From Candidatus Falkowiibacteriota bacterium (GTDB lineage Bacteria; Patescibacteriota; Patescibacteriia; Patescibacteriales; UBA12465): 48,167 nucleotides of DNA. The stretch lies in NCBI GenBank assembly GCA_003554785.1, contig PWHG01000069.1, positions 1-48,167 on the forward strand, in the 5' to 3' direction. Every line of letters starts with the position of its first letter. Positions within the stretch are counted from its first letter, which is position 1. This document shows, in pieces, positions 28,671 through 34,532 of the stretch. The notes under the pieces were generated by a model. It saw only the letters and a list, made by a program, of their open reading frames with translations, ran no database searches and was not told the origin of the DNA. The position numbers were made by a program, and so were the translations under genes.

Positions 28671-29639
28671 ATGTTTTCATATCGTTTTTTTCTAAAACAA
28701 GCTTGGGATATAACTAAGCATTATAAACACCTTTGGTTTTTTGGACTTTTTGCCTCTCTTCTTTATGCTAGTGGTGAATATCAGATTATAAGTTCATTTT
28801 TAAGTCAAAATGACAGTGGTACTTTCTTAGGCACTTGGATGATTATTATTGGTAGTTTGTTTACTGCTTCTTTTTGGACTGGACTTTTTGAGCTAGCCTC
28901 ACAAAACCCCACACTTTTATGGACCTTTATTTCCCTGTTTATTTTAGCAGTCGCCTTATTTATTATTTTTCTCTATATTTCTATAACATCACAAGCAGCT
29001 TTAGTTAACCAATCAGCTAAAATAATAGAAAGTAAAAAGAAATTAACTAATCTCAATATTAGTGATGGTTTAAAAAATAGTCGAAAATGGTTTTGGACAG
29101 TGCTGTGGCTTAACCTGGGAACTAAACTAGCTATTACTATATGCTTTTTAATTTTAAGCATTCCCCTTTATTTCACTATAATAAATCAAGCTTGGTTTAG
29201 CGGAATCGTTTATGCTTTGCTTTTTATAGTATTTTTACCGATTGTGCTTTTTATTTCCTTTACTATGAAATATGCTATTGCTAGTTCAATTATTGAAGGG
29301 AAAAAATTTCTTGAGGCTGTAAATCGAGGAACCCAAATGTTTATAAACAACTGGTTAGTTAGTTTTGAGATGGCCTTTATTTTATTTCTTATAAATTTTA
29401 TAGTCGGTTTATTCAGCCTCCTTTTTGTTACTTTATTTTTTGTTTCCTTGTATGTAATTGGTATGTTAGTCACTTCAGTTTCTTTGGTTGTCTTTAGTTT
29501 ACTACTAACAATCGCTACCATGGCTTTAGTGGCCGCTCTTTTGGGAGTATTTCAAACAGCTGCTTGGACAGGATTATTTTTAAAAATTAAAAAAGAAAAA
29601 GGTCGTAGTAAATTAGAAAGATTTTTTCTAGGAAAATAA
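28671..29639 (+). CDS. Multi-pass membrane protein, function unknown
   Basis: 322 aa with about six hydrophobic segments. Confidence 0.8.
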   Translation: MFSYRFFLKQAWDITKHYKHLWFFGLFASLLYASGEYQIISSFLSQNDSGTFLGTWMIIIGSLFTASFWTGLFELASQNPTLLWTFISLFILAVALFIIFLYISITSQAALVNQSAKIIESKKKLTNLNISDGLKNSRKWFWTVLWLNLGTKLAITICFLILSIPLYFTIINQAWFSGIVYALLFIVFLPIVLFISFTMKYAIASSIIEGKKFLEAVNRGTQMFINNWLVSFEMAFILFLINFIVGLFSLLFVTLFFVSLYVIGMLVTSVSLVVFSLLLTIATMALVAALLGVFQTAAWTGLFLKIKKEKGRSKLERFFLGK

Positions 29640-29699: not shown

Positions 29700-32600
29700 A
29701 TGAGCGACTTAAAATCAATTGACGACTTAATTAGCCCTTCTTCAGATAAAGAAAATGATCCGGTTAATAAGTTTGCTAAAAAACAAAAAGAAATTAAGTT
29801 AAAAGCAATTGAAAAAGAAACTAAAAAGAAAGCTAAGTCTATTGGAATGCCATACATTAACTTAGTTGGTTTTCCTATTAGCCCGGAAGCAATTTCTTTG
29901 ATTGATGAAAAAAAAGCTAAAAAAATTCAAGCAGTCTGCTTTTTCTATGATGGAAAAAATTTACGCCTAGCTTGTATTGAACCAACCAAAGAAGTAATCG
30001 AAACTTTAGAAAAACTCAAGAAAAAATATTACTGTCAAGCTAAGCTATATTTAATTACAAAAAACAGCTTTGATTACGCACTAGAAATTTATAAGTCAGT
30101 TCCTAAAATTAAAAAAACTAAAGGCGGAGTAGAGATTAAAGAAAAAGACTTAGAAAAATTTAAACATGAAATAAGTGATTTTAGAAAATTAGATGAAAAA
30201 ATTAGTAAAGTTAATATCTCAGATATTGTCACATTACTTTTAGCAACAGCCATTAAAATAAAAGCTAGTGATGTTCATATTGAATCAGAAGAGAAAAAGG
30301 TAGCAATTCGTTTTCGTGTTGATGGCGTTTTACAAGAAGCCGCTAAGATTGATAAATCACAGTGGAAAAAAATTATTTCACGCATGAAAATGTTAGCTAA
30401 GGTAAAGATAAACATAGAAGACACTCCTCAAGATGGTCGCTATACTATATTTTTAAAAGACAGAAAAATAGATGTTCGCTCTTCCTTTCTACCTACCGCC
30501 TATGGAGAAAGTGTAGTTATGCGTCTACTTGACTCTGATTCCGTAGCCTTAGATTTAAAGGATTTAGGTTTGCGAAAAGAAATGTTAAATATATTAGAAG
30601 CGGAAATAAAAAAACCCAATGGATTAATTTTGGCCACTGGACCAACCGGGTCTGGTAAAACTACAACTCTTTATGCTATTTTAAAAAAACTTCATCACCC
30701 AGATACAAAAATTATTACCCTAGAAGATCCAATTGAATATCAGATAGAAGGTATAAATCAAAGTCAGGTAGATAAATCTAGTGAATATGATTTTGCTCAA
30801 GGCTTAAAGTCAGTTCTGCGACAAGACCCTGATATAGTTTTAGTTGGCGAAATTCGTGACAAAGAAACTGCCCAAACTTCAGTTCAAGCCTCTTTAACGG
30901 GTCACCTGGTATTATCAACTCTTCACACCAATGATGCAGCTGGAGTGATTCCAAGGATGATAGATATTGGTGTAAAGCCATATTTTTTAGTGCCTTCAAT
31001 TAATACAATTATTGGACAAAGACTGGCTAGAAAACTGTGTCCTAAATGTAGAGTAGAGCATGTTTTAGATGAGGAGGAAAAAGAAAAAGTCAAAAAAATA
31101 TTAGCGGTTATTTCTCCAAAGGCCAAGGTTGATGTTCCCTCAGAGCTACCAACAATTTATAAAGCCGGGAAGGGCTGTGAAAATTGTAATGGCTTAAAAT
31201 ATAAAGACAGGGTTGGACTTTATGAAATATTTACTATGGATGAAAAAATTAAGCAATTAACTTTTGATAAAGCCCCTTCTTTTAAAATTTTAAAACAAGC
31301 TATTGAAAACGGTCTAATTACTATGCTTCAAGACGGTATTTTGAAATGTCTTGACGGCCTAAGTTCTCTTGAGGAAGTTTATAGAGTAGTTGGTAATTTT
31401 GACTATATTGATGATCTCTATGAAAATGTAATTTCTCAAACTATTGGTCGTGGTATAAAGCTGGAAAAAGGAGAATATCAAAAGGCACAAGAAATTGGAA
31501 AAAATATTAATCAAATAAAAAGTGAAGATTTAGATAAAACAGCACCTAATGAATTAATTAATTTAATTTTAAGTTTAGCGGTTATAAATCGTGCTGGTGA
31601 TATTCATATTGAACCAGCAGAAAAAGAAGTCAAAGTTCGCTTTAGAATTGATGGCGTAATGCATGATATTTTAACTATCTCTAAAACTGCCTTTTTGCCA
31701 GTTATCTCTGAAATTAAAATTCTAGCTGGCTTTGCCACAAATGTAAAAAAAGCTACCTTAGATGGACGCTTTAGTATCTATGCACCTGATAATAAAATAG
31801 ATTGTCGCTTATCAATAATTGCTGGTGGTTACGGAGAAACGATTGTTATTCGTCTGCTGGACAATACCATGGTATCTATGGGGTTAGAATCTTTAGGTGT
31901 CACCTCAGTAGCCAAAAAATCTCTTGACAAGGCAATAAATAAGACCAAGGGAATAATTATCACTTCTGGTCCCACTGGATCTGGAAAAACTACTACCCTG
32001 TATGGAATTTTAAAAAAATTAAATAAATCTGATAATAAAATAATTACAATCGAAGATCCAATCGAATACAATTTGCCAGGAGTAATTCAAACCCAAATTG
32101 ATAAAGAAAATGATTATACTTTTGCTTCTGCTATGCGCTCACTTCTAAGACAAAATCCAAACATAATTATGATTGGTGAAATTCGTGACCAGGAAACCGC
32201 TAAGATTGCAACTGAAGCTGCCATGACAGGACATCTAGTACTATCAACCATTCACGCCAATAGCGCTGCCGGAGCCATTTCTCGTTTAGCTGGTTTAGAT
32301 ATTGATCGCTCCAGTCTAGCTAACTCTCTTGAGTTTTCTGTTGGACAACGTCTAGTTAGAAAGCTTTGTCCTGATTGTAAAAAAGAAACAGAAATTGATA
32401 AGGACCAAGAAAAAATTGTTAAAAAAGAATTAGATAATATAAAAAACCCTGAACCTGAAATAGAAATTCCTAACAAATTAGTATTTTATAAACCAGTTGG
32501 TTGCCCAAAATGTAGCCAGTTAGGTTTCAGTGGTAGACTTGGTATATATGAAACCATTTTAAGTCATCCAGAAATTCAAAAAATAATGCAAAAAGAAAAA

Positions 32601-32723
32601 GTTACCGATGAGGAGATTAGCCAGGTTGCCAGTAGTCAAGGAGAACTAAATATTATGCAAGATGGAATACTAAAAGCTTTAAATGGAGAAACTAGTTTAG
32701 ATGAAATATTAAGAGTAATATAA
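29700..32723 (+). CDS. Tandem-duplicated PilB/GspE-type secretion ATPase (two complete ATPase modules, 1007 aa)
   Basis: Two Walker A motifs (ATGPTGSGKTTTLYAILKKL, TSGPTGSGKTTTLYGILKKL), two Walker B regions (VLVGEIRDKETA, IMIGEIRDQETA), two tetracysteine modules. Confidence 0.93.
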   Translation: MSDLKSIDDLISPSSDKENDPVNKFAKKQKEIKLKAIEKETKKKAKSIGMPYINLVGFPISPEAISLIDEKKAKKIQAVCFFYDGKNLRLACIEPTKEVIETLEKLKKKYYCQAKLYLITKNSFDYALEIYKSVPKIKKTKGGVEIKEKDLEKFKHEISDFRKLDEKISKVNISDIVTLLLATAIKIKASDVHIESEEKKVAIRFRVDGVLQEAAKIDKSQWKKIISRMKMLAKVKINIEDTPQDGRYTIFLKDRKIDVRSSFLPTAYGESVVMRLLDSDSVALDLKDLGLRKEMLNILEAEIKKPNGLILATGPTGSGKTTTLYAILKKLHHPDTKIITLEDPIEYQIEGINQSQVDKSSEYDFAQGLKSVLRQDPDIVLVGEIRDKETAQTSVQASLTGHLVLSTLHTNDAAGVIPRMIDIGVKPYFLVPSINTIIGQRLARKLCPKCRVEHVLDEEEKEKVKKILAVISPKAKVDVPSELPTIYKAGKGCENCNGLKYKDRVGLYEIFTMDEKIKQLTFDKAPSFKILKQAIENGLITMLQDGILKCLDGLSSLEEVYRVVGNFDYIDDLYENVISQTIGRGIKLEKGEYQKAQEIGKNINQIKSEDLDKTAPNELINLILSLAVINRAGDIHIEPAEKEVKVRFRIDGVMHDILTISKTAFLPVISEIKILAGFATNVKKATLDGRFSIYAPDNKIDCRLSIIAGGYGETIVIRLLDNTMVSMGLESLGVTSVAKKSLDKAINKTKGIIITSGPTGSGKTTTLYGILKKLNKSDNKIITIEDPIEYNLPGVIQTQIDKENDYTFASAMRSLLRQNPNIIMIGEIRDQETAKIATEAAMTGHLVLSTIHANSAAGAISRLAGLDIDRSSLANSLEFSVGQRLVRKLCPDCKKETEIDKDQEKIVKKELDNIKNPEPEIEIPNKLVFYKPVGCPKCSQLGFSGRLGIYETILSHPEIQKIMQKEKVTDEEISQVASSQGELNIMQDGILKALNGETSLDEILRVI

Positions 32724-32728
32724 ATATT

Positions 32729-33304
32729 ATGTTAGACAAAAATTTAGCTAAAGACTTAAAAAAACAATACTTTCAAAAAGAAAAGGAAAGACGACAAATA
32801 ATAAGGCTTGCCAATGAAGTTTTGTTTATTGCCAAAAAAACCATCTTTGCCCTGCACCGTGAAAATATTGATGAATCACAAGAAAAAATACTTGAAATGA
32901 ACAGCAAAATACAAAACTTGGAAAAACAATTTGGCTACACCAGACTACAAAGCGAAGGCGCCTATCAAGCAGCTCTAGAGGAATATGTTGAAGCTATTTG
33001 CTTTAAAGCTGTTTTAGATAATAAGAAAATAAAAAAAGTAAAGGATGTAAAATTAAACCACGTTAGCTATATTGGTGGTTTATGTGACTTAATTGGTGAA
33101 ATGGTTCGCCTGGCTACCAATCAAGCAGCTAAAGGAAATTTTGAATTAGTTCCTCGCCTTAAAAAACAAGCTGAAGATATTATGTCAGAGCTTTTAGAAT
33201 TTGATTTTACTGGGTATTTGCGTACCAAATATGATCAAGCCAGGGGACATTTGCGAAAACTTGAACAAATTCATTATGACTTAAAATTAAGAGATAAAGA
33301 GTAA
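32729..33304 (+). CDS. Translin/TRAX-superfamily protein
   Basis: REKxRR..ANEVLFIAKKTIFALHR, YQAALEEYVEAICF, GGLCDLIGEMVRLA, RTKYDQARGHLRKLEQIHYDL. Confidence 0.85.
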   Translation: MLDKNLAKDLKKQYFQKEKERRQIIRLANEVLFIAKKTIFALHRENIDESQEKILEMNSKIQNLEKQFGYTRLQSEGAYQAALEEYVEAICFKAVLDNKKIKKVKDVKLNHVSYIGGLCDLIGEMVRLATNQAAKGNFELVPRLKKQAEDIMSELLEFDFTGYLRTKYDQARGHLRKLEQIHYDLKLRDKE

Positions 33305-33306
33305 TT

Positions 33307-33753
33307 ATGATAATCGCAATTTTTTCCGACTTGCATGACAATTTAAAAAACTGGAAAAAGTTAAATAAGTTTCTAAAAGAAAAAGATATTAAAACCCTTC
33401 TTTTTGCCGGTGATTTAACTAAACAATCCACTTTCAAGCAAATAAAAAAAGATTTTCAACACGAAATCTTTTTTGTTTCCGGCAATGCTGATCTTTTTGT
33501 AAGCAAAGAACTACCTGAATCAAGAATTATTGAAATTAAAAATACAAAAATTGCCATTAGTCATTTTTCATCAAATTTTAAAAAGGAAAACAATGATTAT
33601 GATTTTTGTTTTTACGGTCATACCCATAAACCTTGGATAAAAAAGCATAAAAATACTTACCTTGTTAATCCAGGAAGTCTAAATGATAATAATTTTTCTA
33701 GCTTTGCTCTGCTGGATGTTAAAAATAAATATATTAATTTACAAAAACTATGA
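33307..33753 (+). CDS. YfcE/MJ0936-type calcineurin-like phosphodiesterase
   Basis: IAIFSDLHDNLKNW, FAGDLT, VSGNADLF, FYGHTHKPW, VNPGSL. Confidence 0.9.
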   Translation: MIIAIFSDLHDNLKNWKKLNKFLKEKDIKTLLFAGDLTKQSTFKQIKKDFQHEIFFVSGNADLFVSKELPESRIIEIKNTKIAISHFSSNFKKENNDYDFCFYGHTHKPWIKKHKNTYLVNPGSLNDNNFSSFALLDVKNKYINLQKL

Positions 33754-34532
33754 AAAAATCAATCTATCTATCAAGTATTGAACCAATAATAAAAAAAGCT
33801 GGGCAAGCAGCTTTAAAAAAATGGTATAAATTTGATCGTCAAAACTCTATTTTAAAAGGTGAAAAAGACTTAGTTACTAAAGTTGATATTGAAACGGAAA
33901 AATATTTAATAAAAGAAATCAAAAAATCATTTCCCAGTCACGGTTTTTTAGCTGAAGAATCTGGCAAACAAAATTTTTCAGCTTCCCATGTTTGGTTTAT
34001 TGACCCAATCGACGGCACAACTAATTTCACTATTCACAATCCACTGTGGTCTATTTCAATTGCTTTGGCTAAAGATAAAGACATTATCTTTGGAGCAATT
34101 TATTATCCTTTTCTTGATGAACTTTTCTGGGCGGAAAAAGGAAAAGGTGCTTATTTAAATCAGAAGAAAATTAATCTAGATAAAAAGCTTAATCCTAAAA
34201 AACAAATTCACACTTATTGTCATGGCAGTGGTTTAAAAGCAAAAAAACAAGCAATTAAATACTACAAACTACAAAAATTAAATTCTCTAGATTGTCGTCA
34301 GTTGGGAAGTGCAGCGATTGAATGCTCATATGTTGCTTGTGGTCGAGTGGACTCATTAGTTATCCCAGGCGTTAATTCTTGGGATGTTGCTGCTGGTGCT
34401 TTAATCGCCAAAGAAGCAGGCGCTAAAGTCCTAGATTTTTCCGGAAAGAACTGGAGCTTAAATAGCCAAGATATTTTACTTTGTCATCCAAAGCTTAAAA
34501 AAGATATATTGAGTGTTTTACAGAAATTATAA
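33750..34532 (+). CDS. Inositol monophosphatase family protein
   Basis: [49 protein letters not shown]. Confidence 0.93.

What the first reader, a model, noticed from the sequence alone, without database searches (positions are those of the whole stretch)
32729..33304. Translin/TRAX-like protein in a bacterium, with apparently intact catalytic acidic residues
Helical pattern with ALEEYVEAICF, GLCDLIGEMVR and KYDQARGHLRKLEQIHYDL matches the translin superfamily, known mainly from eukaryotes and archaea. ExxE (EYVE) and DxxxE (DLIGE) arrangements resemble the TRAX RNase site, implying possible RNase activity. It sits 6 bp after the double PilB gene.
Basis: partly seen in the sequence, partly recalled or inferred. 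Interest (0 to 1): 0.7.

Follow-up and report, generated by a model that had tools for sequence, protein, structure and literature searches.

The report
TRAX-type ribonuclease in Patescibacteria
This small gene encodes a bacterial relative of TRAX, the RNA-cutting half of the animal RNA-clearing enzyme C3PO, with its cutting site intact; it is a standard gene in one group of tiny uncultured bacteria, where its role is unknown and where it occurs without any detected RNA-interference machinery.

Summary
The observation and its interpretation both hold. Window 32729-33304 (+) encodes a 191-aa translin-superfamily protein: Pfam Translin E 8.6e-20, and predicted-structure matches to human TRAX (Z 22.4), archaeal AfC3PO (22.0) and NeC3PO (20.5). 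The ExxE (E85, E88) and DxxxE (D120, E124) residues align with those of human, fly and two archaeal TRAX proteins and are invariant in 131 distinct relatives; mouse translin has lost three of the four. The protein is therefore TRAX-type. The genome is a Falkowbacteria-like Patescibacterium. The gene is near-universal in its family (29 of 29 good genomes), present in about half of its class, and rare in the rest of the phylum. It is single-copy, with no translin partner and no Piwi domain in the family; RNase P RNA, RNase Y, RNase J and PNPase are there. Two Elusimicrobia-group genomes carry copies nested in the Patescibacterial clade, pointing to lateral transfer. Most likely it is a self-assembling, metal-dependent single-strand RNase that clears short RNA pieces. 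Fold, site and single copy are shown; oligomer, activity and substrate are inferred. Bacterial TRAX was already reported (Gupta 2012), so this is a new member of a known kind. A fifth invariant acid, E84 (Q in all five references), is a possible lineage signature.

The parts
32729..33304 (+). TRAX-type translin-superfamily protein, 191 aa
   Evidence: Pfam PF01997 E 8.6e-20; AF2 model pLDDT 96.4; best structural match human TRAX 3pja_J Z 22.4
32978..32992 (+). Codons 84-88: ExxE half of the acidic site (E85, E88) plus the invariant extra acid E84
   Evidence: E85/E88 align with E/E in HsTRAX, DmTRAX, AfTrax and NEQ131; E84 is Q in all five reference proteins; all invariant in 131 relatives
33086..33100 (+). 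Codons 120-124: DxxxE half of the acidic site (D120, E124)
   Evidence: D120 and E124 align with D/E of all four TRAX references; D120 is the position that differs (D to A) between the AfTRAX entries 3zc1 and 3zc0
29700..32723 (+). Upstream gene: double PilB-like ATPase (two T2SSE domains), probably same operon
   Evidence: Pfam T2SSE, two stretches; same cluster directly upstream in 59 of 80 named loci
33307..33753 (+). Downstream gene: calcineurin-like phosphoesterase (Metallophos_2), two bases after translin
   Evidence: Pfam E 5.1e-26; directly downstream in 33 of 80 loci
33750..34532 (+). Inositol monophosphatase-family protein, overlapping the previous gene by 4 bases
   Evidence: Pfam E 2e-59

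Best explanation
The gene encodes a TRAX-type, catalytically intact translin protein. It probably assembles by itself into a closed homo-oligomer (as archaeal C3PO does) whose inner surface carries the E85/E88/D120/E124 metal-binding acids, and cuts single-stranded RNA that enters the cavity. In the cell it most likely clears short RNA pieces, such as the 5' leaders released by RNase P or decay intermediates from RNase Y/J, as a housekeeping accessory RNase that is not tied to RNA interference. SHOWN: family, fold, conserved acidic site, single copy with no translin-type partner, no Piwi domain in the family, presence of RNase P RNA, RNase Y, RNase J and PNPase in the family. INFERRED: oligomer, metal-dependent cleavage, and the substrate (weakest step).
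For: Pfam Translin. Profile matches to NEQ131 4.5e-25, AfTRAX 1.2e-21 and human TRAX 1.2e-20, against 2e-14 or weaker for translin chains. AF2 pLDDT 96.4; structure matches Z 22.4, 22.0, 20.5. The acidic quartet matches the TRAX references while mouse translin keeps only one of the four; invariant in 73 relatives gathered by profile and 131 in all. One copy in each positive genome of the family. No Piwi in 39 genomes. RNase P RNA in 34 of 39. PNPase, RNase Y and RNase J in the family. Transfer to Elusimicrobia without the PilB neighbours fits a self-sufficient enzyme; in one of these it sits among RNA-metabolism-type genes. Trax alone degrades RNA in N. equitans (PMC9051087); C3PO is believed to degrade RNase P 5' fragments (PMC7586317).
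Against: No biochemical test. The monomer was modelled, not the octamer. The conserved neighbours in Falkowbacteria (PilB, phosphoesterase, inositol monophosphatase) give no clear RNA link. About half of the class lacks the gene, so it is dispensable at that level.
Confidence: 0.75

Rival explanations
1. It is a non-catalytic single-stranded RNA/DNA-binding protein (translin-like), with the acids kept for structure or metal-stabilised assembly rather than cleavage.
For: The fold is shared with non-catalytic translin (Z 19-20); basic residues K36, R127, R165 and K167 are invariant.
Against: Mouse translin, the binding-only reference, keeps only one of the four acids, whereas all 131 relatives keep all four.
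Confidence: 0.12
2. It is an RNase dedicated to a specific process of its operon, for example regulating the pilus ATPase mRNA, or acting with the downstream phosphoesterase and inositol phosphatase in one nucleic-acid or nucleotide recycling pathway.
For: Tight spacing in the window; PilB-like gene upstream in 59 of 80 loci and phosphoesterase downstream in 33 of 80.
Against: In other families of the class the neighbours are different, with a P-type ATPase-like or MltG-like gene upstream and a MurD-like or UvrD-like gene downstream (names read by eye from the sequences), and in Elusimicrobia they differ again. The linkage can be shared descent.
Confidence: 0.1
3. It is part of an RNA-interference-like or defence pathway, the bacterial counterpart of RISC activation.
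For: C3PO in animals degrades the nicked passenger strand (PMC9051087).
Against: No Piwi-domain protein in any of 39 family genomes, with a positive control ringing; near-universal presence in the family is unlike a defence gene.
Confidence: 0.03

Closest known systems
Archaeal C3PO / TRAX (AfTrax of Archaeoglobus fulgidus, NEQ131 of Nanoarchaeum equitans)
   Same: Similar length, about 20% identity over the full fold, the same acidic quartet, no second translin-family gene in the family's genomes
   Different: Bacterial host; carries E84 where the archaeal pair has Q; Patescibacterial sequences group together apart from both archaeal ones (support 0.89, few outgroups)
Eukaryotic TRAX (TSNAX), RNase subunit of C3PO
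   Same: Highest structural Z (22.4); SKxxIFxLHR-type first-helix motif, ExxE and DxxxE all kept
   Different: TRAX works in a hetero-oligomer with translin and in RNAi or tRNA metabolism; here there is no second subunit and no Piwi protein; shorter, lacking insertions seen in TRAX
Eukaryotic translin (TSN)
   Same: Same fold (Z about 19-20)
   Different: Mouse translin has lost three of the four acids; profile similarity is clearly weaker
Bacterial TRAX described in 'eubacteria' (Gupta, Kale and Kumar 2012, J Mol Evol; Chloroflexi, from memory of its abstract)
   Same: A bacterial TRAX-like single protein
   Different: Different phylum; not compared here, because the paper is not held and no Chloroflexi sequences were obtained

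Membership tests
Translin superfamily (PF01997) | Profile match above curated cut-off over the full domain | tested here: met
   72 bits vs 25.9 cut-off, profile 2-205 of 205
Translin superfamily (PF01997) | All-helical translin fold | tested here: met
   Model pLDDT 96.4, seven helices; Z 18.7-22.4 to translin/TRAX chains (14.4-14.5 for two shorter fly translin entries), next unrelated 9.2
TRAX (catalytic subfamily) | Four acidic residues ExxE ... DxxxE at the aligned positions | tested here: met
   Aligned with four TRAX references; invariant in 131 relatives
TRAX (catalytic subfamily) | Closer to TRAX/archaeal proteins than to translin | tested here: met
   hmmsearch with A1: NEQ131 91.8, AfTRAX 80.6, human TRAX 77.3, best translin 57 bits
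TRAX (catalytic subfamily) | Superposition of the four acid side chains on the TRAX site | tested here: inconclusive
C3PO | Octameric barrel assembly | not testable with these tools
   Only monomer prediction offered
C3PO | Mg2+-dependent single-strand RNA cleavage | not testable with these tools
   Needs a bench assay
Eukaryotic C3PO (TRAX plus translin) | Second, translin-type subunit in the same genome | tested here: not met
   One PF01997 match in the own genome (82% complete) and in each positive genome of the family
RISC-associated C3PO | Argonaute/Piwi protein in the genome | tested here: not met
   0 of 39 family genomes

The most novel reading that the evidence does not exclude
Patescibacteria hold a distinct, old lineage of stand-alone C3PO ribonuclease with a five-acid active site (E84 added to the canonical four). 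It serves a general bacterial RNA-clearing role without RNA interference and is portable enough to have been taken up by Elusimicrobia. This would show that the RNA-clearing function of TRAX does not depend on its role in RNAi and may predate it.
Probability: 0.3. Interest if true: 0.55.

Novelty: new member of a known kind. Interest (0 to 1): 0.42.

Why it matters
TRAX/C3PO is studied almost only in animals, fungi and a few archaea. A single-subunit version conserved across about half of a bacterial class, in genomes of roughly 1 Mb that keep few accessory genes and in a family with no detected Piwi protein, offers a clean system to ask what the enzyme's basic job is. The lateral copies in Elusimicrobia give carriers with larger genomes to look at.

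Tried and rejected
Single-protein scan of genome contigs with P0001 found nothing, its patterns having fallen on variable stretches; alignment A2 worked instead. Alignment A1 was too diverse to scan with. Archaeal sequences through plasmids with AfTrax: none. Phages: none. Viral contigs: none. Naming a control genome as a centre, to reach archaea, was not accepted, so the tree has only two archaeal references and the origin cannot be decided. The idea that translin replaces missing core RNases or RNase P was rejected: RNase P RNA, PNPase, RNase Y and RNase J are present in the family. The RNAi link was rejected for lack of Piwi. The NCBIfam names 'haloacid dehalogenase superfamily protein' (PRK14562) are taken as a naming error in those models, since the same region matches translin by Pfam and structure; all were far below their cut-offs. 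Promoter-like and terminator-like sites in the region were about as frequent as in shuffles. 14-3-3 and other helical rows in the structural list (Z 9.2 or below) were treated as background. The NeC3PO paper (PMC5100593) is not held.

Full report
What is there. Window 32729-33304 (+) is a complete 191-aa ORF. It matches Pfam Translin over essentially the whole profile (E 8.6e-20, 72 bits against a cut-off of 25.9). By sequence its solved relatives are AfTRAX and NEQ131, the archaeal C3PO proteins, then human TRAX.

Whose genome. The window is contig 35 of a 0.91-Mb, 86-contig genome, 82% complete. Named relatives found by an alignment search are mostly Candidatus Falkowbacteria, Parcubacteria-group and other Patescibacteria records; the own record is not named by the tools, so 'Falkowbacteria-like' is an inference.

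Distribution. In the same family 37 of 39 genomes have it, 29 of 29 of the good-quality ones, and one copy each. In the class 198 of 380 do. In an even draw over the phylum 26 of 379 do, 22 of them in the same class. It was not found in phage records or viral contigs. This looks like a vertically kept chromosomal gene of one part of the Patescibacteria.

Active site. An alignment of 73 proteins, gathered by profile and so not chosen for the site, has E84, E85, E88, D120, E124, R127, R165, K167, K36 and G123 invariant, at identities to the window protein down to 24%. With the named loci this holds in 131 distinct proteins with a median pairwise identity of 46%. The named set was found with patterns that include E84 and E85, so it is biased for those two, but the first 73 are not. 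In a common alignment the four acids E85, E88, D120 and E124 match the acids of AfTrax, NEQ131, human TRAX and Drosophila TRAX; mouse translin has R, F, I and E there. The AfTRAX entry 3zc0 differs from 3zc1 by D to A at the column of D120, which looks like the depositors' inactive mutant (inference). E84 is Q in all five reference proteins, so an added invariant acid beside the site may be particular to this lineage; five references are too few to be sure.

Structure. AlphaFold2 on the alignment gave mean pLDDT 96.4 and pTM 0.89, seven helices. The best structural matches are human TRAX 3pja_J (Z 22.4, rmsd 2.0 over 189 residues), AfC3PO (22.0) and NeC3PO (20.5), with the next unrelated fold at 9.2 (Foldseek also puts these chains on top). 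Side-chain superposition could not be measured because coordinates are not given.

TRAX or translin. A profile of the bacterial proteins scores NEQ131 at 91.8 bits, AfTRAX 80.6, human TRAX 77.3, fly TRAX 72.4, and translins at 57 or less. With the acids this makes it TRAX-type. In a small tree rooted on mouse translin the Patescibacterial proteins are one group (support 0.89) with weakly supported archaeal neighbours (0.58). Origin is therefore open.

Company. There is no second translin subunit and no Piwi domain in 39 family genomes. RNase P RNA (34 of 39; not found in this incomplete genome), PNPase, RNase Y and RNase J are present in the family. So the protein neither replaces the bacterial RNA-decay core nor serves an Argonaute pathway. 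Upstream in 59 of 80 named loci is a PilB-like gene, downstream in 33 of 80 a calcineurin-like phosphoesterase (Pfam). Elsewhere in the class the neighbours change, so the linkage can be descent.

Lateral transfer. One genome recorded as Elusimicrobia (2.4 Mb) and a second from the same phylum group (3.0 Mb) carry a copy, the only two out of 198 searched there. Both copies lie on long contigs (384 and 301 kb) among genes unlike the Patescibacterial neighbourhood, keep all the invariant residues, and nest within the Patescibacterial tree as sisters (0.999; an enclosing clade with named Patescibacteria 0.91), about 70% identical to the nearest. In one the translin lies between a poly(A)-polymerase/tRNA-nucleotidyltransferase-like gene and a metallo-beta-lactamase-fold gene, with a PIN-PhoH gene next, which fits RNA metabolism but is one case.

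How it likely works. By analogy with archaeal C3PO: a homo-oligomer with an inner acidic site that binds metal and cuts single-stranded RNA. A paper held here states that Trax alone, through oligomerization, is capable of RNA degradation in N. equitans (PMC9051087), and another that the C3PO complex is believed to degrade the 5' fragment left by RNase P (PMC7586317). Oligomer, metal and substrate are inference here.

Novelty. Translin-superfamily proteins in 'eubacteria' were reported in 2012 (Gupta et al., cited in PMC5424206; Chloroflexi from memory). I found no held paper on translin in Patescibacteria; most subscription papers are not held. It is a new member of a known kind, with a possible lineage signature at E84.

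Noticed in passing
window 29700-32723: PilB-like ATPase with two T2SSE domains in one 1007-aa chain. Of 56 complete PilB-like ORFs upstream of translin in named relatives, 36 are 1003-1031 aa and 20 are 567-599 aa; 33 have two exact Walker A motifs. A fused double motor is conserved in part of these relatives.
   Followed up: partly
L117 6001-6597 and L159 5948-6523: Translin copies in two Elusimicrobia-group genomes nested inside the Patescibacterial clade: apparent transfer from Patescibacteria to a larger-genome phylum.
   Followed up: partly
L117 4247-9639: Translin flanked by PolyA_pol/tRNA nucleotidyltransferase, metallo-beta-lactamase-fold and PIN-PhoH genes, an RNA-metabolism-like cluster.
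   Followed up: partly
NCBIfam models PRK14562 (NF011156-NF011161), matched by window 32729-33304: These models are named 'haloacid dehalogenase superfamily protein' yet match a translin-fold protein; probably a naming error that would hide prokaryotic translins.
   Followed up: no
window 28671-29639: 322-aa ORF upstream of pilB with no Pfam match, hydrophobic by eye (membrane protein?).
   Followed up: no
L036 and L046 (G166:C1:372800-373306): In G166 the translin match was reported as two pieces of one 194-aa open frame; taken as a split alignment, not two genes.
   Followed up: no
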